Origin: Tubulanus polymorphus
Lineage: Eukaryota; Nemertea; Palaeonemertea; Tubulaniformes; Tubulanidae
Reading direction: 5' to 3'
NCBI RefSeq assembly: GCF_964204645.1
Contig: NC_134025.1
Span: 31,650,001-31,714,000, forward strand
DNA length: 64,000 nt
The notes under the pieces were generated by a model. The model saw nothing but the letters and a program-made list of their open reading frames with translations. It made no database searches and was not told the DNA's origin. The translations under genes were made by a program, and so were the position numbers. Positions 5,920 to 62,077 of this stretch are shown here, in pieces (within the stretch, counting starts at the first letter, position 1; the number at the start of each line of letters is the position of its first letter).

Positions 5920-7611
5920 TCACACGTGACTTAAAGGTAATTGTTTACTCCCGTGATAACTGGGGTTGCTATACTTACTAATCCTAGATTGACTACCGGC
6001 AGTAGAAACAGATCGTCGGCACAGCCGGCCGTAGAACCGTCGCCACGAGTCTAAAGTCTTACCGCTCCAAATCCAAAATCCTGAAGTAATTCCTACGACT
6101 AAACACATAAAGTATTTTAACATGAAAACTGAATAGTCAGGTCTGATCGGTTCGGCTGTCAGACACCGACAATTGTGACTCGTTTCCCAACTTTCACGAA
6201 AATGTTGTTCATAGAAGTAGCAGGCGATGACGATAGTCGCCGGTACCGTGTATAAAACCGAAAATACTCCTATTCGGATCATTAGTTTTTCCAGTTTATC
6301 TGTTTTCTGTCCACCTTGTGCTTTAATAACGTTACGGATTCGGAATAAGGACACGAAACCGGCCAATAGGAACGATGTTCCGATGATTAGATACACGAAT
6401 AGCGGAGCCAAAACGAATCCGCGAAGATTATCGAGATTCTGATTCCCGACGAAACAGATTCCCGCGATCGGATCTCCGTCAACTGACGACATCGCTAGAA
6501 CTGCTATACTCTTCACAGACGGTATCAACCAAGCCGCCAGATGAAAATATTGCGAATAGCTGGCGATAGCTTCCTGTCCCCATTTCAATCCAGCGGCCAG
6601 GAACCAGGTAAAACTCAATATCACCCACCAGATCGACGACGCCATTCCGAAAAAGTATATAAACAGAAAGACGACAGTACATACGGCAGGTCCAGTCGTA
6701 TCGTATCTAATAAACTGACCGTCACAAGCTACAGCCTCGTGGCCCATAGCAAGTCTGATTATATACCCGAGACTAACCATAAAATAACACGCGCTCAGGA
6801 AGATTATAGGCCGTTCCGGATATTTAAATCTCTGCATGTCGATGAAAAATGTGCTAACGGTCATCGAGGTCGAGATACAACATAAAATCGACCATAAACC
6901 GATCCAAAACGACGCGAATGTTTTCTCCTCGGGGCTGAAATACGTTCCTTGACAAGTTTTCACGCAGTTTTTGACTCCTCCGGTTGTGATACGGTTATAA
7001 TAGCCGCTAGTTTCATCCACGACTTCAACCATCGGATCGTTACAACGACAAGAACAACCTTTAACGGTAGATACTGATAGCGGGTCGTGAGTAACGGTCG
7101 GTGCAGGGTAGTATTTCGGTTTAGGCGCCGGTGTCGGACTCGACGTATTGAAATCCATACATAACTGGTCCTTATCCCCGTATAAAGGTAGATTTTCGCA
7201 TCTCATACGTTCGGGCCAGGCGAATCCGTACTGTCGCATTAGCGGCGCGCATCCCGATTTGGCCCGCTCGCAAACTGACCGACAAACAGGTAAATTCTTG
7301 TGATAATTCGTCATACAAATTGGAGCGTACATACTGCACAGAAAAAACCGTAAATCCGGCGAACATTGAATCTCGACTAACGGCCAAAACTGATGAACTT
7401 CCAGACCGGCCTCGTCTTGAGAATCGTGGTTAAATTGATTGGGCATGAATGTCATATTATACCCGATACCCCGACACATCGGGATCGTTATTTCTTGACA
7501 TTTACGGGGTTGATCCGAACCGGCACCGGCGAGTGAGGATCCCGTAAACATCAACACTAATAATACTAACACATCCATCGTGTTAACCCACATCTTCGCA
7601 GAGTTCGACAT
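5920..7611 (-). CDS. fz5/8: Frizzled-5/8 Wnt receptor, intronless, complete
   Basis: Seven-pass membrane receptor for Wnt ligands, 563 residues in one uninterrupted reading frame. A hydrophobic signal peptide (about residues 12-30) precedes a cysteine-rich ligand-binding domain whose ten expected cysteines are all present (C38, C46, C83, C92, C99, C110, C114, C121, C138, C151). A linker with two further cysteine clusters (about 186-220) leads to seven hydrophobic helices between about 233 and 516. The Dishevelled-binding KTxxxW motif is K518-T519-L-D-S-W523. The protein ends in LSHV, a class I PDZ ligand like that of vertebrate FZD5. Possible N-glycosylation sites are N52 and N155. The motif at the start of the cysteine-rich domain ([16 protein letters not shown]) and the [19 protein letters not shown] block are typical of the Fz5/8 subgroup rather than Fz1/2/7, Fz4 or Fz9/10. 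The first ATG is chosen (context AACGATGT); Met7 and Met12 are possible alternatives. A single coding exon is usual for this subgroup. Confidence 0.97.
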
Positions 7612-8140
7612 CGTTCCTTTAACTAATTCATTCGATTAATACTCACGATTTAATTTACTCGCGTAATAAAGTTTAGTCCACGCGTAAATATTCTGTTTAT
7701 AATGTATTAAATCCGTATGAAGTATAGTTTTCCATATCCATAATGTGTTTTAATACGCGGTGGAACGAGTTCTATAAAATCCTGTACACACTGTATAATT
7801 GTCGGTGTTTGAATGGGACAAATTTCGGGGGTTGAATTCACTATCCCTAATCCGCCAAGCGAAAATGCCTAGAAGCGTCTCAAATTCAGCTGCTTGTAAA
7901 GAGCGCAGCTCACACCTTTGTGATGGAAGTGGGCATGTCAGAAATCGACGGCGCTGCGATTAGTCCAACATTGACAGCTGCCAATCACTAACGGCGCTTT
8001 CGTTGAAAGCGGTGGATTATGCGGTGACGTCACGGCTCGTCATAATCGTTGGGAGGCGCGAATGGATCGTATGGGAATCAGGAACCTGCAAATAGAGACA
8101 ATATCGCTGTAAGATTGTGCTGCAACTGACGTCAGAATCT
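7612..8140 (-). promoter_or_regulatory. Probable 5' flank/promoter of frizzled-5/8
   Basis: The sequence directly upstream of the frizzled start is locally richer in CG dinucleotides around 7840-8070. It contains two perfect CRE palindromes (TGACGTCA) at 8025-8032 and 8127-8134, plus a CCAAT box at about 7981. No TATA box in the minus orientation was seen. CREs and CCAAT boxes are typical of proximal promoters. The transcription start is not defined, so the boundaries are approximate. Confidence 0.45.
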
Positions 8141-9557
8141 GGAACTAGAAAATATTACCGCAGTGCAAAATGTATTTACAAATCTGATTTATATAACTCA
8201 ACAACATAGCCGCACGTCAGGGCCCCGAGAGAGAGAGCAGACTATAGGAACCCGCGAACAAAGACTAACCAAATAACAGCTCTAATGCCATTCAAAAAGA
8301 TATTATCAATTTTCTGCATTTATTGTTTACCCAAGTTCAAGATTTATACGAATCACCCGTCAAATTTTATATTCTATTCAAGCATTGTAGCGGAGAAAAT
8401 TCTTTCAACTGGCGCACTCAGTTTTTATAGAGTTTGATAGAGTCTGATAGAGTAGGCGTACAACTTACTCTTCTGAATAAATACAATTAAATACATTTCA
8501 TCCCTATAAATATCTTCGTGTTATAAAATCTATACATTTTAATAAATTCCGTAAATATAAAACAGATATTCTAAACAGTAAATAAGATAATACAATCACC
8601 GAGCGACGAGCGTAAAATCCAACGCCGAGATAAGATAAGCAATTCGTAACTATGCGTTACATTTCTAGGGTTTGATAATCGGCGATAATCTGAGATTATC
8701 AAATCGATAATCTTATATAAACTATATGGTTATTAGATTCGTTAAATTTAACCCCTATCTCAAACTGAAAGTGTCAGTATAAGGTTTGTACAATGATTTT
8801 TAATTGTTGGAATTAACGTGAAAACGTTCATTGTATTCAAACACGTCGTCGCTAAGGAATGAAATTAGTGATTGTTCTAATAAAACACGTGATTATAGCG
8901 TTAACAACAACAATGAATTAACTGATTGTTGACAAACTGTTAGAACTAATGACGTCATGATGTGTTTATTACGTGTTCAACACCGGTTCAAACTGTTAGA
9001 AATGTAACAAACTAAAATAAACTCCAGGCGTCAATAGGAAATTTACTAAAACATTGCAACAATTTAAAAATATCGTCTATCGGTGAAACATCTAAACATT
9101 TAGAGTCAAACAAACTTTAGGTATAAAATTACTCAAATATCGTGCCATCTCTTGTTTTTACCATTTCGATGACAGTTTCAATCGTTCTAATGTTTCACAC
9201 TTTCAACGTATTTCAACGTAAATGGATTTTACATTAAATAATACTATATCAAAATGTTCATGTAAAAATTCAAGTAAAAAGAAGATATTTTTAAGCTCAT
9301 TATAAAAGAACCCCAAAAACTGCAGCCGTAAATGATGAATTCACTCCCATTTCTGATGAAATTATTCAGTGAACCTTCGTAATTTAACACAAAATCTAGT
9401 TATAAACTGTAACTATTTTTCTTAACATTCACTGAATTTGTTGTGTTAAAAATACGAACGATTTAATTTTCATCGAATTCATGATTTTTTTTTTGCCGCT
9501 ACGAAATTTACACTAAATCAAAACAATCACAATTGAAAATGTTGTGCGTACTAACAA

Positions 9558-9648
9558 GCTCAGCTCGGCTCGGCTCGACTCAGCTCGACTCGGCTCGGCT
9601 CGGCTCGGCTCAGCTCGGCTCAGCTCGGCTCGGCTCGGCTCGGCTCAC
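9558..9648. repeat. (GGCTC)n pentanucleotide repeat
   Basis: About 18 units of cggct with occasional cagct or cgact variants. Confidence 0.93.
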
Positions 9649-10335
9649 CTCTTTCGCTTTAGTTGGAAAATTTGTCCAGGAAAAATCCTACAAAATATCC
9701 CACACTAACCTGTATCGACAATGAGAAAGAATCGCTTCGGGCGAGATTGTGTTTATTAAACTGGACAAATAGGGTTTTATGGAGAGCACCTCGGAGGGAT
9801 TGGAATCTTGGGTCCCACCTATGGTTTTAACTATTCGCATTTTCGAATAACTTTTCAACACCGGCTGTCAGTGAACAATAGCCGAAATGACTGACATATT
9901 AACGTCGTTTTATTTTTTCTTAATCACCCATGCATTTCATGTCCCCTGTCGTAGCCACAATATGTAGGATCTTTACAAGGAAGCTTATAGTGAATAGGAC
10001 TATTGTTGATGACACTCGGTCTAAAGAACTACTACCCAGTCATTACAGTAAAAAGGTGTCAAATACGACAAGAAAAACTCGAATAAGGTCACACAACGAC
10101 TAATACATGACAACTCGCTTTTAAAGTTTTCTATCAATTTGTCTCGTTACAATTGAGATATTGAAGTCCAACCCAGGAAATTAGAATCACCGAAACTGGC
10201 TCTAAACCTATCTGTGAGAAAACTGAGGGGGTGGATGGTGCTGACACCTATTGTCCAATGCGCTGTGGGATTTAGATAAACTTTGGTTTAATTACTTATG
10301 TCCAGTGTCCAAATAGACTCGTCTAGCCGAATTGT

Positions 10336-10492
10336 ATCCAGTCTAGAGATGCCCGTTGCCAGTCTTGAGATGAAAAGTATCAGGACTAGAGATGACCAGT
10401 CTCGTGGAATAGATGACCAGGGCTCAGTCTAGAGATGACCAGTCTCGCGGACTAGATGACCAGTAACCAGTCTATGGATGACCAGTGTCCAC
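10336..10492. repeat. Degenerate 17-30-bp repeat (agatgaccagtct)
   Basis: Repeated agatgaccagt preceded by ctagaga or cggacta; irregular spacing, old and diverged. Confidence 0.6.
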
Positions 10493-11139
10493 TATCGGGC
10501 CTAGATATCCAGGTGACAGATGATTGACCAGTCAGTGGGATGTAAATATATCTAAGCAGGAAGTTTATATAGAAAGAGGAGGATGTGCTATAGTAATAAC
10601 AAGGGTACTTCATATCTATATGTGACCAGTTGAAAGAGTTGACTGAGTTGAGAGGAGTCGAGAGGGATATGTCAGCTCCACTAATACCACACACATACAC
10701 ACACTGTGAGTTATAATAATACCCGAGCCGTCTCTCACAATTCCGAGAAATTCTCCACCGCCAATGGAAAAAAATCCTATCCAAATAAAAGTCTGAGTGT
10801 TTACACAAGGTCGAAACAGTAAAGACAGTCATTGTTTTCCTTGTAGAAGTTAAGAATGGAAACATCGCTACTTAAAATTTCAGTAATTTCGACACGCTGG
10901 CAGTTAACCTTTGCCCGGTATTCGGCGGAAATACCGGTTACCAGTCTAGTTCCGGGTACTAGTCTAAATACAGCATCCTATGCGCCTGATATGTAAGAGG
11001 TCCACGTCACCGGAGACTCGTATATGATACGATTATTGATATTCCATCAAAACTTATCAAATTGTTAAGAATAAAATCAGGTAACTTGAAACGGTTTTAT
11101 TAGTATGTGAATATCATCACGATGACCTCATCGCCCTCT

Positions 11140-11282
11140 CTGCTACCCGTGGCCCTCCCTGCCTCCCGTGGCCCTCCCTGCCTCCCGCGACCTCCCTGCC
11201 TCCCGCGACCTCCCTGCTTCCCACGACCTCCCTGCCTCCCGCGACCTCCCTGCCTCCCGCGACCTCCCTGCCTCCCTCCTGC
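11140..11282. repeat. 18-bp minisatellite (cctccctgcctcccgcga)
   Basis: About seven copies with minor variants. Both Pro-rich and Gly/Arg-rich frames across it are by-products. Confidence 0.92.
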
Positions 11283-13628
11283 CTTGCAGCGTTATAATAC
11301 AGCACACATCAAACTGCATCAATCTCTAAACCTTATATGATTTATTTGATAAGTAGAAATCAGCTTACCCCATCCCCCTTACTCAATCCCCCCTCACCCC
11401 TCGAGGCTACTGCTGTATCACTCTACAGCCTTCAATATCTATATCGATTGATCCCCCTCCCCACACCCCCTCACAACAGATCAACCTCTCATTTCAAATA
11501 ATTCCGTCCGCTCAGAGACACAGCTATAAATATGAGAGTATCAGATATTTAACTCGTCTGAATTGTTAGATTTAATCCTAGTTGTTTAAATCCCTCTGAT
11601 TTACCGGAATATAATCAGAGATTTCATATTCTCATTCGGGGAATAAAAATAAAGTAATATTTGATTTCTGTCGTTTAAAAAAAACGTCATTTGTTACCGA
11701 TACAAAGAATACATTATTCATAGTCTGTTCCAAACCCCGAGGTGCTGAGCTTACTGCGGCACGTGAGTGAAATGACCCGTACACAAATTCGTAAAACATA
11801 CAAACACGTCACGTGATCGCTAATCGATTTAAACAGACAACAAAAAACTGTGCAGCAATCACTCGTGCGTGAGGTCACGTGACCTACTCGCATTGTGACG
11901 TCATCGCGATGATGCCCACAGGTTCAGGGGGTATACACATCTAACCCTGACCCTCAAAGCTATCGGTTTACATCCCTTGCTAGTTTTGGATACTGAAACC
12001 AAGGAAGCAAAAATGACCAAACTGCAGATTGATTGAATCTGTCTCTCTTTAACGTGTTTGATACTGAAGCGAGCTCTAACCCTACTGTCGCTGCTTATAC
12101 TACAACTTAGCGCCCCCTGGTTAAAATAAATTAGAAATATATCTATAGGTTAACTATATAATAATGTGAATCAACACAAATAGAATATAATTAATTTATC
12201 ATTGAGTTGAATCTAACATAGATTGTTTGACCGCTTTTTGGGCAGTGAACGACCTTGACCTTTCATTGTAAAATAGCGAATCGCTATTAAGAGATTTGTT
12301 TGTAAAAAAGGTTGAAGTTAAATCGTCTGCTATCGGATTATATTCGCATCGTCGCCTCTGTATCAATCTCTCTCTCCGTCTCATTATGTGTTGATAAAAC
12401 TGAGGAAAAAACGATGCACAAATGTTTATCAAATATTCCGTCACTATAGAAACAAACCGGGACTAAAACATCGCCGAAATATTCTCTAATCTTCAATCGC
12501 TTTGTTTGTACGGATTTAAATTCGATCTGCAGAAAGTTGAAAGAGTGAATTCTTAAGTTTGTGAAACTGTATTTTAAGTTTGTTTCGCCTGATATTGAAT
12601 TGTGTCTGGAGATTGTAAAGAGTCAGGGTTGTTACAATGGATACGCGTAGTTCCACAGTAGATGAGATGGGAGGAGGTTATTTGAAGGGGCCTCGGGGCC
12701 TCGCATTAATCCTCTATGACCGCTCGATTCATCTCAACACGGCAGCATATAACCCGATATTACTGAACGCCAGTGACCTTCACCTTGCACCACGATGACG
12801 TCACGACACCGAAAGGTATAGCTGCTTAGAGATGAATCTGAGACCCGATTAGAAAGACGCTTTTGAAGACGCTGTAATTCAAGGACGGAAGGAACGGACA
12901 CAACACGGTTAAGTCAGAGAATGGCGAGTTTAGTAGTGTTTGATATGAGATATGATGAGAGAGGCGTTAGGGGCGTTTGGGGCGTTAGGGGCGTTAGGGG
13001 TTTAACGGCATTGGAAAAAATAATCCAGTTCAGAAAGATAAGCTACTCTTCGTACATCAGCGGACTGTCCAACTCTCTCTCACTGTATAGATGGCTGGTC
13101 CTCTCTCACTCTGCCTCTGGTCCGATTCTTTCTCTCTCTTCCCCTCTGTACACGTCACTCTCAGGAGACAGTGTACATATTGTAGTCCTTTGGTCCAGTG
13201 TTGTCGTGTTGAGTCAGTGAGATGTTGTACTAATACCGTTACCTGAGGGCTTCAAATCTCAAACATCTATCACCAGATGTTTAATATGCATCTTGATTCG
13301 AACCTTTGAACTTTTGATATAACATTCTCTAAACTCCAATCACAAAGAAAATACAGCAGTCGAATATCGCATATCTTAGTGTCTTATATCTCATGCATGT
13401 AAGAAGTTTTAGGGGCGAATTTCACGCTATATTTCTATAACCAGATGGTCAAGTGTTAATGGTCAAAACAAACTCTCCAGTCCAATGAATTAGTCAATAT
13501 TGCGCTGTGTATTAATTGAGTATTTCACTTGTTATGATATAAACGCGAGCGAGGTCGAGCGGGGCTGAGCGGGCCGGGTGTTATTTATATAGACCGAACT
13601 GGTTTCAATACCAGGTGGCCTCCCTACT

Positions 13629-13996
13629 GAGTATACACAACATTCCGCTCTCTCTCTCTTCTTATACTGTTCTAATTAAAATCACTCCCGCTAACTCTAG
13701 TCTCTGTTCCATCTCCATCTCGATCCTTTCTCTCTCCCTCAACTCTCTCCTAGTCCACCTCCTCTATCTCAACCTTCTCTCCTCTCTCCTTTCTCCTCTC
13801 CCCTCTCTCTTTCTCCTCTCCTTCCATCTCTCCTCTCTCTTTCTCTCCCCTCCTCTCTCTCTCCCCTCCTCTCTCTCTCCCCTCCTCTCTCTCCTCTCTC
13901 TCTTCATCTCCCTCCTCTCTCCCCTCCTCTCTCTCTCCCCTCCTCTCTCTCTCCTCTCTCTCTTCATCTCCCTCCTCTCTCCTCTTCTCTCTTCAC
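13629..13996. repeat. Pyrimidine-rich CT tract with internal duplication
   Basis: Long ctctctcc-type sequence; a block of about 60 bp ending cttcatctccctcctctct occurs twice near 13880-13980. Confidence 0.9.
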
Positions 13997-14626
13997 CAGG
14001 CTAGAATAACATCTTTAACAATGACGTCATTATCGATAGATGGCGACACAAGACGGTGTTATAATTATTAATTAGATATGAACGCATTGTTATCGCGACC
14101 CGAAAATAATGATGTTATCATCATCAATGCATCTTCAATGTTCATCGGAGCAGAATTTACAGCTAACTGACAGGAAATGGCACATCACTAGTGGTATTAG
14201 AGAGGAGGGTTCTCTTTGGTTTCATCACGAACACAAATTATCGAAATTAGTTTTAATTATGAATGTCTCGCGGTGTGATCTATCACATGCCTGATTACAT
14301 ACACTGATTATAACGCACCGATAAATAGTTCGTGAAGCTAGTGTTATTTCAGATCAGTTTTATGAGTTTCACTTTCAAATCAGTTCATAATTAGACCTTT
14401 GATCTTCCGAGCTAAAATATATTGTTCAGAGTTTATGAAATTATTTCGAATCTGTGTTATGTCCTAGTTTTCCTAAAAATATATATTTTAATCGATAAAT
14501 TGCCCTCCTAATCGCAGGTACATTTAGTATCATAGCGGGTATTGTTAGTGAAATAGAGTCGCCACACCTGACTGGTCACCAGTCAACCACACTAACCGGA
14601 CAAATTCCCCAACACTCTCAGTCACC

Positions 14627-14854
14627 AGAACTCTATGGTCTAGTGGTAGACACTCTGGTTTGGTACGTGAGAGACCCGAGTTCGAGTCTCAGCCGAGCTA
14701 GGGTTAGGGTTATGGTGGATGGAGCTAGGGTTAGGGTTACGGAGGACCTAGGGTTAGGGTTATTGTGGACCTAGGGTTAGGGTTATTGTGTGGCTTGGTC
14801 TCTATATTTTGGTGCCCGAGGAAGCCGAGGTTTGCATTTTTTGAATAGAGTTCT
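14627..14854 (+). mobile_element. tRNA-derived SINE with TAGGGT-rich tail, copy A
   Basis: Starts AGAACTCTATGGTCTAGTGG with a pol III A box (TGGTCTAGTGG) and a B box (AGTTCGAGTCT) at tRNA-like spacing, resembling tRNA-Glu. The body continues GCCGAGCTAGGGTTAGGGTT and has four blocks of telomere-like TAGGGT. It ends ATAGAGTTCT, the exact inverse of its first ten bases. A second copy (27586-27691) shares the head and the start of the tail. Confidence 0.75.
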
Positions 14855-16242
14855 GTTCACCGATCTCTCTATAGCTCCGTTGTAAAACTTTCTTATAGGT
14901 TGCGTCTAAGAGTTAATCCTTCTAAATGCAGTAGTTTAATCCAGGGTTACGAGTTACTTCACTAATCCCTTCTGCTAAAAGAGTCGGGTTACACCGACCT
15001 CCTAGTGACAGGTATAGGCGATGATTGACAGAATAAATCTATTCCTGGATTAACGGATTCTAACTCAAGTATAATTGATCTGTTATATAACAGACTAAAT
15101 AGCGATAAATACCTGTCGGTAAACACACTAATCTAGGTCACATGTGCCTGTCAAAATAACGCGTTAATCTAGGCTACATGAGCCTGTTGAGTAACGCGTT
15201 AATCCTAATCAGGAAAAATCTACGGATTAAACTTACTTGGAAGAAAAGAGAATTAAATTCCTTACTGCGGTTTAAACGGAGTAACAAATCTCGGTTTAAT
15301 CGCTCCGTAATAAGATCTCGAAAATGACAGGTCTATAATGTAAAGTCTTATCGTATGTGTCAGGGTGATAAGTGTGTTTAGTGGTGGTTTATCAGTCAGT
15401 GTGATAAGCAGTTACCCTCCTACTGTGTTATTGATTTACTCTAACACTAAGTATATTTGCATGTAAATCTATTTAACACTCCAGGAGTAATATTTACTCT
15501 TTGAATTAGTGTCAGTCAAACTATACGCGATGAAGTAAAAGTCTCTGTTGTGAGGTGTATTATTTACTCCTCGTTTGTTGTTGAATTCTATTTTCTGCCA
15601 CGTGTTTCATGTTTTACAAAGTTCTGTCGGATTTTGTTTGCGTTTCATGTTTTCTATGACCTGAACATTCTCTGCACAAACTCGAATCAAATACAGATTT
15701 ATCTAGTTTGAATTATTGTATTTACCCCCGATACAGAGCTGATCTAACATACGACTCGTAGCTTATGACCCAGAGAGATCGACTCCTCTCTATCTGATCA
15801 ACTCGCTACTATCCACAGATTGCGACAAGAATCTTCTAACTAAAGTCTGTAAGTGTAAAACCCGCTATACAAAATTAAACAGATTCTTCGAATCTTCGAA
15901 TTCTATTTATTAAGAATTAAAAACAAAATACACTGTGACGTTTCGAACTGTCAACAGATATCACACGTGACGACGATCTGTAGTAAGAGTTGTCACTGTC
16001 ACTGTGTTCGGGCTACGTGACGATGATCTGTAGTGAGAGTTGTCACTGTGTTCGGGCTATGAATCAGTTCTATGTCTATCGTGAAGATTTGTAAAGCTTT
16101 ATGATGACAGATGTCCCTGGATGCGCGATACTCTAACCATTGACTGCCAGAGTCTGTGTCTGTCTGTGGGGTTAACGAGACCGTCACTAATTATTGAGGC
16201 GGGGCTGACGCATTCTACCGAGCCATAACGGGCACGTGTCTT

Positions 16243-16358
16243 AACAATAAATTCGAACCCGGGACTCACCTACCAACACGTGTTAGCGATCAAGAAACCG
16301 ATACCAGTAACTTGCACAGCTCGCATCTCTGATGTCCCGGGTTCGATTCCTCCCAGTA
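16243..16358. mobile_element. Two tRNA-like B-box fragments back to back
   Basis: GGTTCGATTCC at 16340-16350 (plus) follows GTAACTTGCACAGCTCGC, as in a tRNA body. About 80 bp upstream the minus strand carries GGTGAGTCCCGGGTTCGA, a second B box facing the other way. This looks like two truncated tRNA-derived elements inserted head to head. Confidence 0.4.
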
Positions 16359-16785
16359 AACTCGCTATCAGAAGTCCCTCCTGTGCGCCTCATCCGCCCG
16401 AGTGTTAGCAATTAATAACCTTGACCCGGCGTGTCAGACGACACCTGTAATTAGTAACGCACTATAGCTCAGGTATTTCGCAATATCTTTTTTAATGTTA
16501 CATTTATCAGAATGTTACCATAGTAACGAGAATTCCAGTACGGATTGTATGATTATAATGGTGTCACAAGCGGAGTGAGCGACAGTGTTACGGCTGCTGT
16601 CTGTCGCTGCTGTCGCTGCTGTCACTGTCTGTCAGTTTGTATTCGTTTACTTCGTTAAACCTTGTTTTATGAATTGGTAAAGAGAGGATCATGTGACCAA
16701 TTTACGAGAAAAGCCGTGATAATTCGAGATGTCTTTACAGTTCGATTTAGTATCGAATAACAATAGAAAACGTATCACTTTGCAT

Positions 16786-17087
<302 letters not shown>

Positions 17088-21935: not shown

Positions 21936-21968
<33 letters not shown>

Positions 21969-45557: not shown

Positions 45558-45560
<3 letters not shown>

Positions 45561-45591: not shown

Positions 45592-45594
<3 letters not shown>

Positions 45595-50687: not shown

Positions 50688-50787
50688 NNNNNNNNNNNNN
50701 NNNNNNNNNNNNNNNNNNNNNNNNNNNNNNNNNNNNNNNNNNNNNNNNNNNNNNNNNNNNNNNNNNNNNNNNNNNNNNNNNNNNNNN
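50688..50787. other. Assembly gap of exactly 100 N
   Basis: A run of 100 N, the conventional placeholder for a gap of unknown size. It lies about 540 bp before the first visible exon of the BTB-BACK-TLDc gene, whose upstream exon(s) may be lost in it. Confidence 0.99.
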
Positions 50788-51210: not shown

Positions 51211-51238
51211 CAGCAGCAGCAGCAGCAGCAGCAGCAGC
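51211..51238. repeat. (CAG)9 tract
   Basis: Pure cagcagcag run about 90 bp before the exon at 51327. Confidence 0.95.
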
Positions 51239-51326
51239 TGCAAGAACCTGTACACGTTCATTCATTAAGTTTTATACACATCCGCAGGTGTCCAGTAGTT
51301 ATAATTATGATGTATATATATTGCAG

Positions 51327-51426
51327 GTGTCCGGCTCTTGTAGACGACAATAAGAAAACTCTATCATTCCCAGAATGCAGTGTTGAAGCATTTCAAGATG
51401 TTCTCAATTATATTTATCTCGGAAAA
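51327..51426 (+). CDS. BTB-BACK-TLDc gene, first visible exon (BTB C-terminal half)
   Basis: Acceptor ttgcag before, donor gtaagt after. The first base completes a codon begun in an upstream exon, so this is not the first coding exon. It encodes 33 residues from CPALVDD to LNYIYLGK, the conserved BTB helix and turn. Exon ends in phase 0. Confidence 0.88.
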
Positions 51427-54400
51427 GTAAGTAATTAAACGACCTCAGATATATCCTTATAGCCCCTGAACCCTGGGAGTAACGAGGCTGTCTGGAGCAC
51501 TCCTCTCTCTCTCCTCACTCTCTCCTCTCTCTCCTCTCTCTCCTCTCCTCTCTCTCCTCTCTCTCTCTCCTCTCTCTCTCCCTCCTCTCTCTCTCCCTCT
51601 CTCCCTCTCTCCTCTCTCTCCTCTCTCCTCTCCCTCTCCTCTCCCTCTCCTCTCTCCCTCTCTCCTCTCTCTCCTCTCTCTCTCTCTCTCCTCTCTCTCC
51701 CTCTCTCCTCTCTCTCCTCTCTCCTCTCCCTCTCCTCTCCCTCTCCTCTCTCCCTCTCTCCTCTCTCTCCTCTCTCTCTCTCTCTCCTCTCCTCTCTCTC
51801 TCCTCTCTCTCTCCTCTCCTCTCTCTCTCTCTCTCCTCTCTCTCTCCTCTCTCTCCTCTCTCTTTTTCTGTGATTCATAACGTATTGTTGAAAATAACAG
51901 GTAATTCTTACTGAAATAATATCACTATTATTACTGTATGCTCCTCGTGGTGTATGATGTTATTCTTATGGATTTAGTATTAGGATTAGTGTAATTGAAT
52001 TCTTCAGGGATATGATGTGGGGGGAGGGGGGGTGCTGCTACCTGGGGGGTACCGGTATTGAGGTCATTCGGTACAATCATTCACGTGTGATACTTATTAC
52101 AATGTTGTATTTTTTTAAACCTGGTTTAGTGTTATCAGTGTTTAGTAATTCATGCTATGTATTCTTATTGATGCTTGATATACGTGAATCAATAATCAAT
52201 ATTATTGATTAGATAGAAAGCAGCTCTGGCTATTGAGTAATCAATTTAGGATACATGTAGTGTCTATGTGCCGAGTCTGATTTCATATTAATTGGAATTG
52301 GAAAAATAGAAAATTGTCGTTCGGTTCAGAGAGTGATAAAACATCAATATCATGTCTCTCCTCGGGGTGCAGCCCAACATCAGGTAGAGGGAGGGCTCAA
52401 TCTACTCCAGGGGGTAGGGTAGTGATGGGAGCAGCCCTACGCCGGGTGAAGGGAGGCTGAATCTACTCCAGGGGGTAGGGTAGTGATGGGAGCAGCCCTA
52501 CGCCGGGTAGAGGGAGGCTCAATCTACTCCAGGGGGTAGGGTAGTGATGGGAGCAGCCCTACGCCGGGTAGAGGGAGGCTGAATCTACTCCAGGGGGTAG
52601 GGTAGTGATGGGAGCAGCCCTACACCGGGTGAAGGGAGGCTGAATCTACTCCAGGGGGTAGGGTAGTGATGGGAGCAGCCCTACGCCGGGTAAAGGGAGG
52701 CTGAATCTACTCCAGGGGGTAGGGTAGTGATGGGAGCAGCCCTACGCCGGGTAAAGGGAGGCTGAATCTACTCCAGGGGGTAGGGTAGTGATGGGAGCTG
52801 CCCTACGCCGGGTAAAGGGAGGCTGAATCTACTCCAGGGGATAGGGTAGTGATGGGAGCAGCCCTACATGGGGGTAAAGGGAGGCTGAATCTACTCCAGG
52901 GGGTAGGGTAGTGATGGGAGCAGCCCTACGCCGGGTAGAGGGAGGCTGAATCTACTCCAGGGGGTAGGGTAGTGATGGGAGCAGCCCTACGCCGGGTAAA
53001 GGGAGGCTGAATCTACTCCAGGGGGTAGGGTAGTGATGGGAGCAGCCCTACGCCGGGTGAAGGGAGGCTGAATCTACTCCAGGGGGTAGGGTAGTTACTG
53101 GAGCAGTCCCACACTGATCCTGCGGAGCAGGGTAGTTACTGGAGCAGTCCCACACCGATCCGGCGGAGCAGTGTAGTAATATATGACCAGCAAGGTGTGG
53201 TTGAAGCTATCTATGTCAGTAAAAATGTGGTAAATTTTGAAGTCATCACAGATTGATTGACTATGATGTGATGATTCATTGTGCTGCTGCTGCTGCTGCT
53301 GCTGTGCTGGTATGCTGAGTATGTGCCGGTATTCACAGACCCTCTAGGCTCAAACCCCTCACTCACTCACTCAGTCACTCACTGATTATATAATATACAT
53401 GACTCAGCTATATCTGTGCGTAGTGCATCTTCAGGTCAACCCCCCCCTCTCTCCTCAGCACCACTAACACAAAATTCATTGATTCCTGTTGTTGTAGGGG
53501 TCAGTAGTTTGTTCAGAAGTTGCTCAGGATCCAATTCCACACGTTGTGAATCAGAGTTAAAATTTGTTCCTATTTTCAATGTGTCAAATCTCAACTCACA
53601 AATGTGGAACTGGATCCTTGTCGTTATCAGTGTAGGGGATTATCCTGTGGGATTATCTCTCTCATAGATTTAAACCTATTAAACTCAGTGGACCAGCAGC
53701 AGCAGCAGCAGCAGCAGTGCATCCTGGGGAGGGAGGGGTGGAGTCAGTCGACCACAAATCACTGATAAACAGATTATAAAATTATTTACAGTCAATAATT
53801 TAAACTCAAATCACAAACTGTCAATTTATCAAAGTCGATGAAAATAGAAATTCTTAAATCATAGTTTTGGAGGAGGGAGGACAGGGCATGTGGAACGTGG
53901 GCTGTGAGGACAGGGCATGTGGAACGTGGGCTGTGAGGACAGGGCATGTGGAACGTGGGCTGTGAGGACAGGGCATGTGGAACTTGGGCTGTGAGGACAG
54001 GGAGGACAGGGCATGTGGAACGTGGGCTGTGAGGACAGGGCATGTGGAACGTGGGCTGTGAGGACAGGGCATGTGGAACGTGGGCTGTGAGGACAGGGCA
54101 TGTGGAACGTGGGCTGGGAGGACAGGGCATGTGGAACGTGGGCTGTGAGGACAGGGCATGTGGAACGTGGGCTGTGAGGACAGGGCATGTGGAACTTGGG
54201 CTGTGAGGACAGGGAGGACAGGGCATGTGGAACGTGGGCTGTGAGGACAGGGCATGTGGAACGTGGGCTGTGAGGACAGGGCATGTGGAACGTGGGCTGT
54301 GAGGACAGGGCATGTGGAACGTGGGCAGTCTCACTTCAAGTTTATTAGTTATCGAAACGTAGAATTGATTTTTAGTCCTCCGGTCACACACAAGGGGTCC

Positions 54401-54786
54401 CTCTTTTCCCTTCCTCCCCCTCCCTCCCCTCCCTCCCCCTCCCTCGACTGTAAGCAACAGTCAACAGTATAAATCTATGAGAGGAAATCATCTCGCTCAA
54501 GGACGAGTTTGTAAAATTGTGTCTTCATCAGTCGATTGTTAGTTGATGTGTCATGTCATTTATTGTATGAGTCATAGAGTCTCTCATCGACTCAGTCAGT
54601 CAACGACTCAGTCAGTCGACTCCAGTCGTAGTCACATTCCAATCTGGAAATAGTTGCAACTTGATGATCATTTATAGAAACATCGTTTTACATAATTTCA
54701 TTGAACGCTTGAGACTCACCGCGGAGTAAGTGAGACACAGAGAGTGAGACAGACTCACCGTGGAGTAAGAGAGAGAGAGAGAGAGA

Positions 54787-54821
<35 letters not shown>

Positions 54822-57800
54822 ACAGACTCACCGTGGAGTAAGAGAGAGAGAGAGTGAGTGAGACTCACCGCAGAGTAAGTGAGACACAGAGAGTGAGAGA
54901 CAGACTCACCGCGGAGTAAGAGAGAGAGAGAGAGTGAGAGTGAGAGAGTGAGACGGACTCACCGCGGAGTAAGAGAGTGAGACGGACTCACCGCGGAGTA
55001 AGAGAGTGAGACGGACTCACCGCGGAGTAAGAGAGTGAGACAGACTCACCGCGGAGTAAGAGAGAGAGAGAGAGTGAGAGTGAGAGAGTGAGACGGACTC
55101 ACCGCGGAGTAAGAGAGTGAGACGGACTCACCGCGGAGTAAGAGAGTGAGACAGACTCACCGCGGAGACACAGTGAGACACAGAGAGTGAGAGACAGACT
55201 CACCGCAGAGTAAGAGAGAGAGAGAGTGAGAGACAGACTCACCGCGGAGACACAGTGAGACACAGAGAGTGAGAGACAGACTCACCGCAGAGTAAGAGAG
55301 AGAGAGAGTGAGAGACAGACTCACCGCGGAGTAAGAGTGAGAGAGTAGACGGACTCACCGCGGAGTAAGAGAGACACAGAGAGTGAGAGACAGACTCACC
55401 GTGGAGTAAGTGAGACAGAGAGAGAGAAAGGGAGAGGGAGAGGGAGAGTCCTAGCCCTCACTCATGTCCTAGCCCTCACCCCTGTCCCAGCTCCATGGCC
55501 CACTCCTGTCCTAGCCCTTCCTTGTTTCTTCTTGTAACCTGTCAAGATGAAACTAAATATCTAGAACCCTCAGGATACTGAGATACTGTCTCTCCCAGTA
55601 CCCACCTTACTCAATCCCACATTGAACAGTTCTCATTTTAAGACATAGAAATCATGTTTCTGATAAAAATTTGCAAGAAAGCAATTTCATGTAGAGATTG
55701 ATGATTTGTACATCTCATATTGATCATCAGTGTCAACTCTATTTACAGCTTCTCAATTTACAATTTTGTGTGGGTTTTACATTTCCACGTAGGAAGCATT
55801 CGTATGGTTTCAGTCCATGACATTTACTCCTAAAACTGTTTGATTGATTCAATATTCTGGTTTTCAGAAATTGTGTAAAATAGAATTAAAACCCACTTCA
55901 TAAACGTGTTCAAAAACGAATGAGTGGTTTCTGAAACACCGAGTCAAAAACTAAAGTCAGTCTGAAACATTCAATTAATTTTCAATTCTTAATTCTTCTG
56001 GGACTGGTTCCATAGTCATGGCTTAGACTTAAGACCAGTGTAAGACCATGTTAGTTCTATAGCCAATCTAACAACTTAAGATGAGTCTTAAGATTTATGA
56101 CCACTTTTGGACTTAAGCCCTGTCTATGGAACCGGACCCTGGTCTATTCTCCACGTCTGAATGAACAGGAACTGATGAATATTTTGTTTTTATTTTCAGG
56201 TAACGTTAAAGACCGATAATATTCTCGATATTTTAATGGTCGCCAGTGAACTGAGGTTAGATAAACTGAAACAAAATGCTGAGAGTTTCGTTTATGACGC
56301 AATGACCGTTGACAACGCCTGTAACATGATGGATAAAGCTATGAAAATTACAGGTCAGTTTCATTTATTAGAAAGAGGTTTGGGGGGAGAGGGATGAGAG
56401 GGAGGTGGGGAGAGGGAGAGAGGGGATGAGAGTGAGGTGGGGAGAGGAGGGGGGAGGGAGGGGGAGAGAGTGATGGTGTATGAGAGAGAGATATCAAATT
56501 TCAGGTCAAAATTCATAAAATCTGTTCATTATTTTGAATGCTAGTTTTCTGTGTGATTATATTTCAGGACCTGATGGAGATCTGTTTAATCAATGTATGG
56601 AGTTTGTTGAAGAACACGCTGAAGATTGTATTGATTCAGATGGATGGTTACAGATCTCTAAACAAACTCTTTGTAAACTCATTTCATCTGATCATGTGAG
56701 TTCAAAAAACTCTACAATCACAAACTCTTTGAGTTCGCTTTATAGTTTTTACTTCGGCCAGTAGGTGTCAGCACGTGATGGATGGTTTCTATTTAATTTC
56801 TAGTTTTCTGTTGAGGAAGATTTGATTTGGCAATCAGTTTTATCCTGGGCGAAATATCAGGTTGGAATCTCTGAGGAGAGTAAACCTGTCGATTGGAGCG
56901 AGGAAGAGAAGGAGAAAATCAAACAGGTAATTATTGTCATCATTCCTTTCCTCTTCACTTTTGGGTCACTAATCAGGTGACGCAACACCCTCGGTATTTT
57001 GTGGTGCCCAAAAGAAATTGCACTCAAAACTCAATACAATTAAGTCAACTAATTTTGCCCTCAGATATTGCCCGTGAAGTCCTCAGATATTGCCCGTGAA
57101 GTCCTCAGATATTGCCCTCAGATATTGCCCGTGAAGTCCTCAGATATTGCCCGTGAAGCCCTCAGATATTGCCCTCAGATATTGCCCGTGAAGTCCTCAG
57201 ATATTGCCCGTGAAGCCCTCAGATATTGCCCTCAGATATTGCCCGTGAAGTCCTCAGATATTGCCCGTGAAGTCCTCAGATATTGCCCTCAGATATTGCC
57301 CGTGAAGTCCTCAGATATTGCCCGTGAAGCCCTCAGATATTGCCCTCAGATATTGCCCGTGAAGTCCTCAGATATTGCCCTCAGATATTGCCCGTGAAGT
57401 CCTCAGATATTGCCCGTGAAGCCCTCAGATATTGCCCTCAGATATTGCCCGTGAAGTCCTCAGATATTGCCCTCAGATATTGCCCGTGAAGTCCTCAGAT
57501 ATTGCCCTCAGATATTGCCCGTGAAGTCCTCAGATATTGCCCGTGAAGTCCTCAGATATTGCCCGTGAAGTCCTCAGATATTGCCCGTGAAGCCCTCAGA
57601 TATTGCCCATGGATTATAATGGTGTTTATAATGTATATGTTACTCTTGGTTTAAGGTTATGGAAGGAGTTCCGGAACATATTCGATTGTTACAATTAACG
57701 AGTAGTACGTTTGCTGAAGAGGTCGAACCTACCGGACTTATACCCATAGAAACGGCGTTAAAATAGTGAGTAGCTCCCTCTATACTAGTCTCACACTCCC

Positions 57801-60349
57801 TCTACTGGTGAAACTAAACACTAAACAGGTAAAATGATGTTTTGTAGTTACAGATGCGCAGCTGTACCGCATAAATTCCGTAACCTAGACGACCCATTGT
57901 TGATACCACGTACGCCGTTGAATCTGTTTCAAGGAACTCAAATACTGAATAAAAACAATCGCGGTTTACAGAAAAAACTCAATGAATGGTAAAATATCTT
58001 CACCCGATCAGATATTAATGATGTTTTAAAAGATTATAAGATACACAATCCAGAATTAAGAGACTGATTAGGATTAAAAACTCAAGGAAACATTTTCAAA
58101 TTATTTTTATGGGATATTATCTGACTATATTGTGTGTAGGCATGGTAAACTATCGACTAAATGGGAATTATTGTACCGAGCTTCACGAGATGGTTCAACT
58201 GCTGATAGATTTCATCATTTCTGTGATGGATATGCTCCGACTTATATCATCATGAAGGTAAGAATGAAAGTTTTATTTCAATTTTATTGCTATTTGCAAA
58301 TTTTGGGGTTAGTAATCAAAATTTCTAAATTTTAATACAAAAACAGCTTCCGCCATCTATCCATAATAAACGGTACTAAATGTTGTAATACCGATGACTG
58401 TACAGTGCTGCCACGTGGTGGTCAGGTTGTGAACCTAGAACATAACTATAAAACTTTCCTTAAGATATGAAATTTAACCCAATACTGCTGCAAATGCAGA
58501 GAAACATGTTTTATTTGGGGCCTTGTTCTAATTGTTTATAACTACTGGTAATGCACCAGTTAATGCAGATACCAACATCAGCTGCAAAAATCCCACAAAT
58601 TCAAACATTAGGAGCCAGCTCCACAGTCCTGGATCCAGCTCCACAGTCCTGGATCCAGTTCCACAGTCCTGAGTTAAAATCGGTTTTCAGTGTTTAAATT
58701 CCAGAGTCAAATCTTAACTCACAGTTGTGGATTTGGGTCGATGTTAACAACCTGTAATTGAATAAGGTGTGATGTATTATATTTTGTAGGGTAAGAATGG
58801 AAATGTTGCTGGTGGTTTTAGTGATGTCCCGTGGACTAGTTGTGCTCCGGCTAAAGGACTTTATAGATCTTCCTATCAGTAAGTACTCTCTCCTTCTGCA
58901 GTGGAACCACAGTCTCTCATTTACTCTCCTTCTGCAGTGGAACCACAGTCTCTCATTTACTCTCCTTCTGCAGTGGAACCACAGTCTCTCATTTACTCTC
59001 CTTCTGCAGTGGAACCACAGTCTCTCATTTACTCTCCTTCTGCAGTGGAACCACGGTCTCTCATTTACTCTCCTTCTGCAGTGGAACCACAGTCTCTCAT
59101 TTACTCTCCTTCTGCAGTGGAACCACAGTCTCTCATTTACTCTCCTTCTGCAGTGGAACCACAGTCTCTCATTTACTCTCCTTCTGCAGTGGAACCATGG
59201 TCTCTCATTTACTCTCCTTCTGCAGTGGAACCACGGTCTCTCATTTACTCACCTTCTGCAGTGGAACCACAGTCTCTCATTTACTCACCTTCTGCAGTGG
59301 AACCACAGTCTCTCATTTACTCTCCTTCTGCAGTGGAACCACAGTCTCTCATTTACTCTCCTTCTGCAGTGGAACCACGGTCTCTCATTTACTCTCCTTC
59401 TGCAGTGGAACCACAGTCTCTCATTTACTCTCCTTCTGCAGTGGAACCACAGTCTCTCATTTACTCTCCTTCCGCAGTGGAACCACAGTCTCTCATTTAC
59501 TCTCCTTTTGCAGTGGAACCACAGTCTCTCATTTACTCTCCTTCTGCAGTGGAACCACAGTCTCTCATTTACTCTCCTTCTGCAGTGGAACCACAGTCTC
59601 TCATTTACTCTCCTTCTGCAGTGGAACCACAGTCTCTCATTTACTCTCCTTCTGCAGTGGTCGTTAGTTAACTCAATAATTGATACGTATTATTTTTTAG
59701 AGCGTTTCTATTTACACTGATAAATAAACAAGACGTCCCTCCGTCGAAATTCAGAGTTTTACATCATAATTTCGCGACAGTTCATCATCCCAGGTACGTT
59801 TCAGTTAGCCATCAAATAGTGTTAGCCATCAAATAGTGTGAGACATCAAATAGTGTTAGCCATCAAATAGTGTTAGCCATCAAATAATGTTAGCCATCAA
59901 ATAGTGTTAGCCATCAAATGGTAGCTATCAAATGAAATGTTGATTCAAACTAGATTTTGATCAGTATTAGAAATCAGAAATAGAAGATCCATGTCACAGT
60001 CGGTACGATTTCTATCAGAAAGTCAAGACATCATTTAATCTTGTAACTTAAGGCTCTGACACCAATTTATTCAAGTTAGCAAAATTTGTGACTGAATTTA
60101 TTCTTGTTTTGTATTTGTTGAATGTTTATTGTAAATTTTAGATTATTTTTGATTGAATCTAATTGTAGTTATGGACCGATATTTGGAGCTGGTGCCGATT
60201 TATCGATATCTGGTAATTGTTTTACTGGTTGTGAATGTTACACTAATCTACCCCACAGTTACCTCGGAGATCAAGCATCTAATAAACTATTAATGGATTC
60301 GTATTATTTCGATTTGGCCGATTACGAAGTGTTTACCCCGATACGTTGA
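51327..60349 (+). CDS. BTB-BACK-TLDc domain protein, 3' ten exons (5' end missing)
   Basis: Joined exons 51327-51426, 56200-56353, 56568-56695, 56804-56926, 57656-57765, 57848-57988, 58140-58257, 58790-58878, 59701-59793 and 60169-60349 give one open frame of 411 residues. Every intron is GT-AG and every phase matches. Order of domains: second half of a BTB/POZ fold (residues 1 to about 65, with the FQDVLNYIYLGK helix), a BACK-like helical region (about 66-200), a linker with the LLIPRTPLNLF segment, and a TLDc domain (about 252-411) with KWELLYRASRDG, GNVAGGFSDVPWTS and the C-terminal FDLADYEVF block. BTB domains dimerise and can recruit Cullin-3. TLDc domains are known from oxidation-resistance proteins and bind the V-ATPase. 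The combination resembles BTB-BACK-TLDc proteins that are abundant in some fungi and amoebae, and I know no human protein of this plan. The initiator and the first part of the BTB domain were not found. Function unknown; a cytoplasmic adaptor role is inference. Confidence 0.9.
51501..51863. repeat. CT-rich (CTCTCTCC)n tract (intronic)
   Basis: Almost pure pyrimidine on the plus strand, with a longer block repeated twice (near 51580-51700 and 51700-51790). About 75 bp after the first visible exon. Confidence 0.95.
52361..53105. repeat. 61-bp minisatellite, about 12 copies (intronic)
   Basis: Unit contains agcagccctacgccgggt, then aaagggaggctgaatctact, then ccagggggtagggtagtgat. Degenerate extra units continue to about 53170. 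Lies in the intron between exons 51327-51426 and 56200-56353. Confidence 0.93.
53526..53618. mobile_element. Foldback MITE-like element, GGATCC family
   Basis: 93 bp bounded by inverted ends: AGGATCCAATTCCACA at the left and TGTGGAACTGGATCCT at the right. Both arms continue with related sequence (gttgtgaatcagag and ctcaactcaca). Similar ends recur at 33899, 42730, 46880, 49820-49880 and 58611, showing a dispersed family. Lies in the first visible intron of the BTB-BACK-TLDc gene. Confidence 0.65.
53872..54325. repeat. 29-bp minisatellite with higher-order structure (intronic)
   Basis: Unit gaggacagggcatgtggaac + gtgggctgt, about 15 copies. A variant aacttgggctgt unit plus an extra gaggacagg appears twice, near 53980-54010 and 54190-54220, so a longer block was itself duplicated. 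It keeps all three minus frames open; these are not genes. Confidence 0.93.
54714..55440. repeat. Complex GAGA/ggactcaccgcggagtaag array (intronic)
   Basis: Mixed units built of gactcaccgcggagtaag followed by variable runs of agag/gtgag. Irregular lengths, about 725 bp. The core reversed reads CTTACTCCGCGGTGAGTC, which contains another gtgagt. Confidence 0.9.
56001..56140. mobile_element. Foldback MITE-like element, GGTTCCATAG family
   Basis: About 140 bp with inverted ends GGACTGGTTCCATAG and CTATGGAACCGGACC. The interior is also roughly self-complementary (taagaccagtgtaagacc against atttatgaccacttttggac). Related interiors (gaccagtttaag, agccaatcttacaacttatg) occur at 17925-18080, 36830-36930 and 40330-40412. 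It ends 60 bp before the exon at 56200. Confidence 0.55.
56200..56353 (+). CDS. BTB-BACK-TLDc gene exon (BTB end / BACK start)
   Basis: Acceptor tattttcag, donor gtcagt. Encodes VTLKTDNILDILMVASELRL and following residues, the final BTB helices and the start of BACK, in direct continuity with the previous exon across a 4.8-kb intron. Confidence 0.9.
56568..56695 (+). CDS. BTB-BACK-TLDc gene exon (BACK)
   Basis: Acceptor tatatttcag, donor gtgagt. Encodes GPDGDLFNQCMEFVEEHAED and following residues; the helical pattern and a Cys/acidic-rich stretch fit a BACK domain. The open frame runs past the donor into the intron, but the downstream homology requires splicing at 56695. Confidence 0.88.
56804..56926 (+). 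CDS. BTB-BACK-TLDc gene exon (BACK)
   Basis: Acceptor tttctag, donor gtaatt. Encodes 41 residues including EEDLIWQSVLSWAKYQ, the E..iw..vl.Wa signature of BACK domains, followed by a charged segment ending in KIKQ. Confidence 0.9.
57062..57608. repeat. 22/13-bp minisatellite (intronic)
   Basis: Alternation of tcagatattgcccgtgaag + tcc and the shorter tcagatattgccc. Fills most of the intron between exons 56804-56926 and 57656-57765. Confidence 0.93.
57656..57765 (+). CDS. BTB-BACK-TLDc gene exon (end of BACK)
   Basis: Acceptor ggtttaag, donor gtgagt. Encodes VMEGVPEHIRLLQLTSSTF and following residues, matching the helix pair that closes the BACK region in BTB-BACK-TLDc proteins. The acceptor lies just after a 550-bp tandem array. 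Confidence 0.87.
57848..57988 (+). CDS. BTB-BACK-TLDc gene exon (linker)
   Basis: Acceptor ttttgtag, donor gtaaaa (weaker than the others). Encodes the linker between BACK and TLDc, with an LLIPRTP segment and the QILNKNNRGLQKKLNEW helix that leads into TLDc. Confidence 0.87.
58140..58257 (+). CDS. BTB-BACK-TLDc gene exon (TLDc start)
   Basis: Acceptor tgtgtgtag, donor gtaaga. Encodes WELLYRASRDGSTADRFHHF, the most diagnostic TLDc segment, and ends YAPTYIIMK in phase 0. Confidence 0.93.
58611..58740. mobile_element. GGATCC-family MITE-like element with tandemly repeated left end
   Basis: The left end unit (gccagctccacagtcct, then ggatccagctccacagtcct, then ggatccagttccacagtcct) is present three times. 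The right end reads cttaactcacagttgtggat, the inverse of the family end seen at 53526. It lies 50 bp before the exon starting at 58790. Confidence 0.5.
58790..58878 (+). CDS. BTB-BACK-TLDc gene exon (TLDc middle)
   Basis: Acceptor attttgtag, donor gtaagt. Encodes GKNGNVAGGFSDVPWTS and following residues, the glycine-rich TLDc strand and the WTS motif. Its donor sits only about 20 bases before a 760-bp array of acceptor-like repeats. Confidence 0.93.
58890..59657. repeat. 36-bp minisatellite of acceptor-like units (intronic), 21 units
   Basis: Each unit contains tttactctccttctgcag then tggaaccacagtctctca. The pyrimidine tract plus CAG is a textbook 3' splice acceptor, present 22 times at 36-bp spacing (CAG ending from 58901 to 59657). 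The array begins about 12 bases after the gtaagt donor at 58879-58884. Since 36 is a multiple of three, all frames stay open; the resulting long frames are not genes. Confidence 0.95.
59701..59793 (+). CDS. BTB-BACK-TLDc gene exon (TLDc)
   Basis: Acceptor tattttttag, donor gtacgt. Encodes AFLFTLINKQDVPPSKFRVL and following residues, the TLDc 'saFLFsL.n' strand. This acceptor is the one that preserves frame and homology, although 22 acceptor-like sequences precede it. Confidence 0.92.
59806..59932. repeat. 18-19-bp tandem repeat (intronic)
   Basis: About seven copies of gttagccatcaaatagt with small variants, directly after the donor at 59794. Confidence 0.9.
60169..60349 (+). CDS. BTB-BACK-TLDc gene, terminal exon
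   Basis: Acceptor ctaattgtag. Encodes YGPIFGAGADLSISGNC, then an SYLGDQASNKLL stretch, and ends YFDLADYEVFTPIR before a TGA at 60347-60349. The GPiFGaG..l.I...c pattern and the final E.Evf block are standard for the C-terminus of TLDc. Confidence 0.93.
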
Positions 60350-61528: not shown

Positions 61529-61534
61529 AATAAA
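61529..61534 (+). terminator. Candidate poly(A) signal of the BTB-BACK-TLDc gene
   Basis: A canonical AATAAA about 1.2 kb after the stop codon, followed within 25 bases by a GT/T-rich stretch (gttgttttatttat). It would end the transcript some 400 bp before the KLF start codon. Confidence 0.55.
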
Positions 61535-61599
61535 CGTCTGATTTCTATAAAGTTGTTTTATTTATATATATTTCTCCTGGAAGTCTGTGACCTCTCCTG

Positions 61600-61975
61600 G
61601 TGAGACCTCTCTGTTGTTGAATTCGCAGTATTTTGACAGATCGTTAACTCCACGTGCTCGATGTTTACAACTACAGATATATTTAGTAACATTATGCCTG
61701 GGTCAATGTCTAATCCAATCAAAATTCACTTCCGTCGCACGCTTACGAGCTCGCTGATTGGCTATCGCGGATAGACCGGTATAGTAGACGCGCTATGATT
61801 GGATGTTGTATGGTAGTAGTGTATGATACAGTAACGGGGTGCCCATGGCTGCCAGTACTGAATACCGGCACCTCTCACCGCGGTACTGTGGTGACTAGAG
61901 GTTGTATTACCGGTATTACAGGCTGATATATGTATGGATGATAAAACGGACTGCAACAGGCAGGACACCGCCGCC
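61600..61975 (+). promoter_or_regulatory. Probable KLF6/7 promoter and 5' UTR
   Basis: Three CCAAT boxes lie in the expected place upstream of the KLF exon: CCAAT at 61715-61719 and the reverse form ATTGG at 61757-61761 and 61798-61802. They are spaced about 41-42 bp apart, a spacing common in NF-Y-driven TATA-less promoters. The downstream part is relatively GC-rich, with CCGCGG near 61878. No TATA box was seen. The start site is unknown. Confidence 0.45.
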
Positions 61976-62077
61976 ATGGATGTATTACCGAGCGGAAATA
62001 TATTCCGTGAATTACAAGTCGTTCATGATACGGGATTCTTCTCTTCGCAAGCATCGTTAGAGGATCACTGGCAACAG
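61976..62077 (+). CDS. klf6/7: KLF6/KLF7-type Kruppel-like factor, coding exon 1
   Basis: The 34 codons begin [10 protein letters not shown] and end SLEDHWQQ. They match position by position the 34-residue first coding exon of vertebrate KLF6 and KLF7, including the LQ.VH.TG.FS core and the terminal WQQ. KLF6/7 are nuclear transcription factors with an acidic N-terminal activation region, encoded in part here, and three C2H2 zinc fingers that bind GC-rich promoters. The fingers would lie in exons beyond the window; I found none before 64000. The start is set by homology and by a perfect Kozak context (GCCGCCATGG). An in-frame ATG at 61934 would add 14 residues without family support. The exon ends CAACAG followed by GCAAGT, so the donor appears to be GC rather than GT. 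Confidence 0.9.

What the first reader, a model, noticed from the sequence alone, without database searches (positions are those of the whole stretch)
5920..62077. Frizzled-5/8 and KLF6/7 are neighbours: a possible ancient linkage
The window places a clear Fz5/8 gene and a clear KLF6/7 first exon about 54 kb apart, transcribed in opposite directions away from each other. Human FZD5 and KLF7 both map to 2q33.3, and FZD8 and KLF6 both lie on 10p. This suggests the pair was linked in the bilaterian ancestor and survived vertebrate duplication. The long gene-poor interval would fit a regulatory block that keeps them together. The human positions are from memory.
Basis: partly seen in the sequence, partly recalled or inferred. 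Interest (0 to 1): 0.75.

Follow-up and report, generated by a model that had tools for sequence, protein, structure and literature searches.

The report
Frizzled-5/8 near KLF6/7, vertebrate-like linkage
In this animal genome a Wnt receptor gene (Frizzled-5/8) and a zinc-finger regulator gene (KLF6/7) lie close together, as their relatives do in fish and mammals, which may be a leftover of an ancient gene order, although that could not be checked in other invertebrates here and another gene lies between them.

Summary
The two genes are real, but the empty interval is not. A single-exon Frizzled-5/8 gene (5920-7635, minus) and KLF6/7 coding exon 1 (61976-62077, plus) point away from each other, start codons 54.4 kb apart. 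I followed KLF6/7 beyond the window: three coding exons, three zinc fingers. The gene-poor part is about 43 kb (7.6-50.7 kb), ending at a 100-N gap, so the linkage rests on one scaffold join. The vertebrate side is in print: KLF7-CCNYL1-FZD5-PLEKHM3 in human, mouse, zebrafish and carp. Here the other vertebrate neighbours I tested are dispersed: cyclin Y is 29 Mb away on the same chromosome; CREB, PAR3, ABI and PLEKHM-type genes are on others. By length, one named gene falls this close with probability about 0.05% genome-wide, or 0.3-0.5% on the same chromosome; allowing 20 possible neighbours, about 1% or 7-9%. Retained ancient linkage is the best reading but unproven, since no other invertebrate genome was reachable. 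A shared regulatory block has no direct support.

The parts
5920..7635 (-). Frizzled-5/8 open frame, single coding exon; first ATG at about 7611
61976..62077 (+). KLF6/7 coding exon 1 (34 codons), followed by a predicted GC donor (CAG|GCAAGT); exons 2 and 3 lie beyond the window at C1:31724999-31725644 and C1:31728192-31728403
51190..60349 (+). Intervening gene with BTB-like, BACK and TLDc pieces (exon borders not determined; 5' end not found, perhaps in or before the gap); its stop codon ends 1,626 bp before the KLF6/7 ATG
7636..50687 (.). Gene-poor stretch, about 43 kb; no protein gene recognised
50688..50787 (.). 100-N scaffold gap between Fz5/8 and the intervening gene

Best explanation
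Fz5/8 and KLF6/7 lie close here because they were already close in the common ancestor with vertebrates, and this pair stayed within some tens of kilobases while most other genes of that ancestral neighbourhood moved away and at least one other gene (BTB/BACK/TLDc-like) came to lie or stayed between them. Vertebrate genome duplication then gave FZD5+KLF7 (still close) and FZD8+KLF6 (same chromosome arm by recall, far apart). The genes work separately, as a Wnt receptor and a zinc-finger transcription factor. Shown: gene identity, divergent arrangement, distance, the intervening gene, dispersal of the other neighbours tested, vertebrate gene order in print. Inferred: common ancestry of the linkage. 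Why the pair persists (shared long-range enhancers, or slow local rearrangement) is not shown.
For: Gene identities. Vertebrate order KLF7-CCNYL1-FZD5-PLEKHM3 in the 4 species that the paper compares (PMC4686014, passages). In this genome: CCNY on C1, 29 Mb away; CREB on C10 (one partial pKID match, 32.3 bits); PAR3 on C10 with a weaker second match on C3; RH-domain genes on C3, C7 and C9; ABI on C6. Length-based chance of one named gene lying within the same distance: 0.04-0.05% genome-wide, 0.3-0.5% given the same chromosome. A wrong join at the gap would have to produce a vertebrate neighbour pair by accident.
Against: One genome only. The scaffold gap lies between the genes. Of the 4 genes in the published vertebrate order only KLF and FZD are close here. 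Another gene lies between them, one not named in the vertebrate order. Orientation differs from human (both human genes on the minus strand, recalled). The pair was noticed after the fact: 'any of 20 neighbours' gives 0.8-1.1% genome-wide and 6.6-8.7% on the same chromosome. By recall Drosophila fz2 and luna are on different chromosomes.
Confidence: 0.57

Rival explanations
1. Shared chromosome ancestry only: both genes belong to the same ancestral linkage group, were shuffled within it, and came to lie near each other by chance in this lineage and separately in vertebrates.
For: Cyclin Y, another vertebrate FZD5 neighbour, is on the same chromosome C1 but 29 Mb away, as expected of linkage-group retention with internal shuffling. 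An unrelated gene between the two fits shuffling. With 20 eligible neighbours on one chromosome the chance reaches 6.6-8.7%.
Against: CREB and PAR3, also recalled neighbours, are on C10, so the linkage group is not simply intact; for one prespecified gene on the chromosome the chance is only 0.3-0.5%.
Confidence: 0.27
2. Ancient regulatory block: enhancers for one or both genes lie in the gene-poor stretch, in the intervening bystander gene or in KLF6/7 introns, and selection against breaking them keeps the pair together. (This is a mechanism for the best explanation and overlaps it.)
For: A 43-kb stretch without a recognised gene and a bystander gene between two developmental regulators, the layout known from such blocks (the Wnt5-7 block with atxn10 as bystander, PMC8851819, passages).
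Against: No conserved non-coding test was possible. The interval is 17% tandem repeat. A TLDc-type gene ends only 1.6 kb before KLF6/7. [quoted passage not shown] No Rfam match reaches its gathering score. Orientation is not kept relative to human (recalled).
Confidence: 0.16
3. Assembly artefact: the two contigs were wrongly joined at the 100-N gap.
For: The only N-run in the 304 kb read lies between Fz5/8 and the intervening gene.
Against: A random misjoin is unlikely to pair vertebrate neighbours (about 0.05% by length). The two 10-kb flanks share only matches of 33-41 bp, which fall in a CT repeat, so there is no sign of a duplicated flank.
Confidence: 0.07

Closest known systems
Vertebrate KLF7-CCNYL1-FZD5-PLEKHM3 neighbourhood (PMC4686014, passages seen)
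   Same: KLF6/7-type and Fz5/8-type genes lie close together with other genes between
   Different: Here no cyclin Y or PLEKHM-type gene lies with them and a BTB/BACK/TLDc-like gene lies between; they diverge, whereas the human genes point the same way (recalled); 54 kb here against roughly 0.6 Mb in human (recalled)
Ancient metazoan microsyntenic blocks, e.g. Wnt5-7 with fbxl14/atxn10 (PMC8851819, passages seen)
   Same: Developmental gene kept near an unrelated gene over long evolutionary time; low gene density in part
   Different: That block is documented across many genomes; this pair is seen here in one genome plus printed vertebrate data

Membership tests
Frizzled-5/8 subfamily | CRD plus seven-pass Frizzled domain, closest to FZD5/FZD8 among subfamilies | tested here: met
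   Pfam Fz and Frizzled; FZD5 784.6 bits against FZD7 615.9; CRD best to FZD8/FZD5. No full-length FZD8, FZD9 or FZD10 chain is in that listing; no tree built
KLF6/7 subfamily | Amino-terminal MDVL...F.ELQ.VHDTG.FS...SLE..WQQ motif (recalled) and three carboxy-terminal C2H2 fingers | tested here: met
   Exon 1 and the start of exon 2 match a recalled human KLF7 amino terminus; fingers 76-88% identical to recalled KLF fingers; three C2H2 stretches by Pfam. In one search (129 of 874 candidates scored, 159 matches, not all listed) only one listed row covers residues 1-39
Conserved microsyntenic pair across Bilateria | Close linkage in several distant lineages, above random expectation | tested here: inconclusive
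Genomic regulatory block | Conserved non-coding elements or enhancers spanning both genes | not testable with these tools
   No second animal genome; no chromatin or expression data
   BTB-like, BACK and TLDc gene pieces at 51190-60349; a 43-kb gene-poor part remains. Regulatory blocks may contain bystander genes, so this does not exclude one

The most novel reading that the evidence does not exclude
Fz5/8-KLF6/7 is an undescribed bilaterian-wide microsyntenic pair held together by shared long-range regulation across a bystander gene, surviving even where the rest of its ancestral neighbourhood (CREB, PAR3, cyclin Y, PLEKHM) has dispersed.
Probability: 0.17. Interest if true: 0.6.

Novelty: new member of a known kind. 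Interest (0 to 1): 0.36.

Why it matters
If the pair is close in other invertebrates, it would add a Wnt receptor and a KLF regulator to the gene neighbourhoods retained since the bilaterian ancestor, and would make shared long-range control directly testable in any animal where both genes can be edited. If not, it is a chance neighbour pair.

Tried and rejected
The open-frame list had been cut in that stretch; on reading it whole and testing the pieces the intervening gene appeared.

Codon-usage scan of the interval: weak; 6 of 11 known exons scored below zero when left out, and it missed most pieces of the intervening gene. Seven frames from the interval, taken from the upper part of that list: 6 of 7 without a Pfam match, the seventh a chance-level one; one of the seven (57647-57763) nevertheless belongs, by eye, to the intervening gene. 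Cyclin Y inside the 304 kb: not found with a recalled query; the general Cyclin_N search gave 17 matches, none near the window. Rfam at E up to 1: 19 matches, all below gathering scores, several on repeats, judged chance. Ancient regulatory DNA paper PMC10735318: 'klf' once, in its reference list, Frizzled not at all. Sea-anemone synteny paper PMC10719294: no KLF or Frizzled in its main text. FoxQ2 paper PMC12828049: the Frizzled passages shown are in the reference list.
Full report
The window lies at C1:31,650,001-31,714,000 of a 267.8 Mb, 77-contig assembly whose first contig is 32.06 Mb. That it is an invertebrate is inferred from the single Fz5/8 and KLF6/7 found and the genome size.

Frizzled. 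The open frame 5920-7635 on the minus strand is one uninterrupted coding exon with the Fz and Frizzled domains. Among solved structures the best match is Frizzled-5 at 784.6 bits, with Frizzled-7 next at 615.9; its CRD is closest to Frizzled-8 and -5. The genome search for the Frizzled domain gave four matches, all on C1. The other three match best Frizzled-1 and -7 (L002), Frizzled-4 clearly (L004) and Frizzled-4 less clearly (L003; perhaps Fz9/10, inferred). So I count one Fz5/8.

KLF6/7. Exon 1 at 61976-62077 encodes 34 residues with the KLF6/7 amino-terminal motif (motif recalled). I fetched 200 kb downstream. Exon 2 carries the rest of that motif and the first finger, exon 3 fingers two and three, the stop ending at window-equivalent 78403. 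Pfam finds three C2H2 stretches in the joined protein. In the genome search with this protein (129 of 874 candidates scored, 159 matches, not all listed) only C1:31711976-31712092 covers residues 1-39; apart from this gene's own exons the listed rows start at residue 165 or later. The predicted exon 1 donor is GC (CAG|GCAAGT), seen in the sequence and not checked against transcripts.

Arrangement. The genes are divergent, start codons 54,365 bp apart. The only N-run in the window, and in the 304 kb that I could read, is the 100-N gap at 50688-50787. The two 10-kb flanks of the gap share only matches of 33-41 bp in a CT repeat.

The intervening gene. On the plus strand, from 403 bp after the gap, lie pieces that read as one gene: BTB-like at 51190-51435 (E 0.0075, below cut-off), BACK at 56519-56761 (4.4e-6), TLD at 58078-58332 (4.4e-7) and a TLD end at 60122-60349 (E 0.082, below cut-off); pieces at 56179, 56804 and 57632 fit by eye but have no relevant Pfam match, so 2 of 7 pieces pass a cut-off. 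The last frame stops at 60349, 1,626 bp before the KLF6/7 ATG. The first half of the BTB domain was not found in a simple motif scan. From 7.6 to 50.7 kb I read the filtered open frames and recognised no gene; this is reading by eye and can miss small exons. The whole interval is 17% tandem repeat, and 645 of 54,340 bases match the rest of the 304 kb read (compared without the KLF6/7 gene).

Neighbours. Upstream lies a PTPN23-like gene (BRO1, ALIX V-domain and tyrosine phosphatase pieces) and two rhodopsin-type GPCR frames (7tm_1); the nearer ends 19.7 kb from Fz5/8. Downstream of KLF6/7 are pieces of a cytochrome P450 (10.5 kb after the KLF6/7 stop), a cystatin and a TCP-1 chaperonin, then pieces that I read as BTBD9-like (BTB), SUPT3H-like (TFIID-18kDa family) and of the BIG/ARFGEF type (BIG2_C). 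Of 8 frames given to, 4 had no match. By recall none of these is a vertebrate FZD5 neighbour.

Comparison with vertebrates. A carp paper states that human, mouse, zebrafish and carp share the order KLF7, CCNYL1, FZD5, PLEKHM3 (PMC4686014, passages). By recall, human 2q33 also holds CREB1, PARD3B and ABI2, and 10p holds CREM, PARD3, ABI1, CCNY, FZD8 and KLF6. I placed these families in this genome: cyclin Y on C1 at 2.60 Mb (recalled query); CREB on C10 at 13.63 Mb (one partial match); PAR3 on C10 at 12.55 Mb with a weaker match on C3; RH-domain genes (PLEKHM/Rubicon type, not resolved further) on C3, C7 and C9; ABI on C6. So of six marker families placed, KLF6/7 alone is close, cyclin Y shares the chromosome, and four are elsewhere. 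PAR3 and CREB are themselves 1.08 Mb apart.

Chance. By length, one named gene falls within 54-72 kb of Fz5/8 with probability 0.04-0.05% genome-wide, or 0.3-0.5% given the chromosome. For any of 20 acceptable neighbours the figures are 0.8-1.1% and 6.6-8.7%. This favours more than chance but does not exclude shuffling within a shared ancestral chromosome.

Literature. Nine searches aimed at the pair or its setting listed no title or abstract start reporting it in an invertebrate; two listings were capped (20 of 29, 25 of 48), and the library holds open-licence papers only. PMC8851819, on microsynteny in 49 animal genomes, has no 'frizzled', 'KLF6' or 'KLF7' in its text (counts); its supplementary block tables could not be read, so the pair may be listed there. 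PMC2889900 (passages) equates Drosophila Luna with KLF6/7.

Verdict. Both genes and their closeness are sound; the empty interval is only partly so. The ancient-linkage reading is the best but rests on one genome and one scaffold join; the regulatory-block reading is untested.

Noticed in passing
C1:116,684; 10,810,578; 22,517,555; 31,656,025 (L004, L003, L002, L001): All four Frizzled-domain matches found are open frames without a break over that domain and lie on one chromosome, C1, which is 12% of the assembly; for the other three this has a chance of about 0.17% by length.
   Followed up: partly
C10:12,546,941-13,629,875: PAR3 and CREB lie 1.08 Mb apart, echoing the recalled human PARD3B-CREB1 and PARD3-CREM linkage.
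   Followed up: partly
C1:8,945,594-8,974,276 and C1:31,775,464: Two Runt-domain genes about 27 kb apart; a SUPT3H-like exon (recalled RUNX2 neighbour in vertebrates) is on the same chromosome but 23 Mb away.
   Followed up: partly
window 51190-60349: The intervening gene combines BTB-like, BACK and TLDc pieces, a combination that I do not recall from vertebrates.
   Followed up: partly
window 62078-62083: Predicted GC (not GT) splice donor after KLF6/7 exon 1.
   Followed up: no
C1:31,810,125-31,868,952: Repeated units 11-18 kb apart with the same open frames; the frame beginning RSVSIKVITKH appears at five places near the chromosome end.
   Followed up: no
window 16782-17091, 30307-31108, 52365-53106, 58888-59660: GCA triplet run of 103 copies and several long minisatellites (26-61 bp units), some giving long spurious open frames; the last two lie within the span of the intervening gene.
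   Followed up: no
window 5255-5492: Stretch matching plant microRNA precursor models on both strands below gathering score, probably a palindromic repeat downstream of Fz5/8.
   Followed up: no
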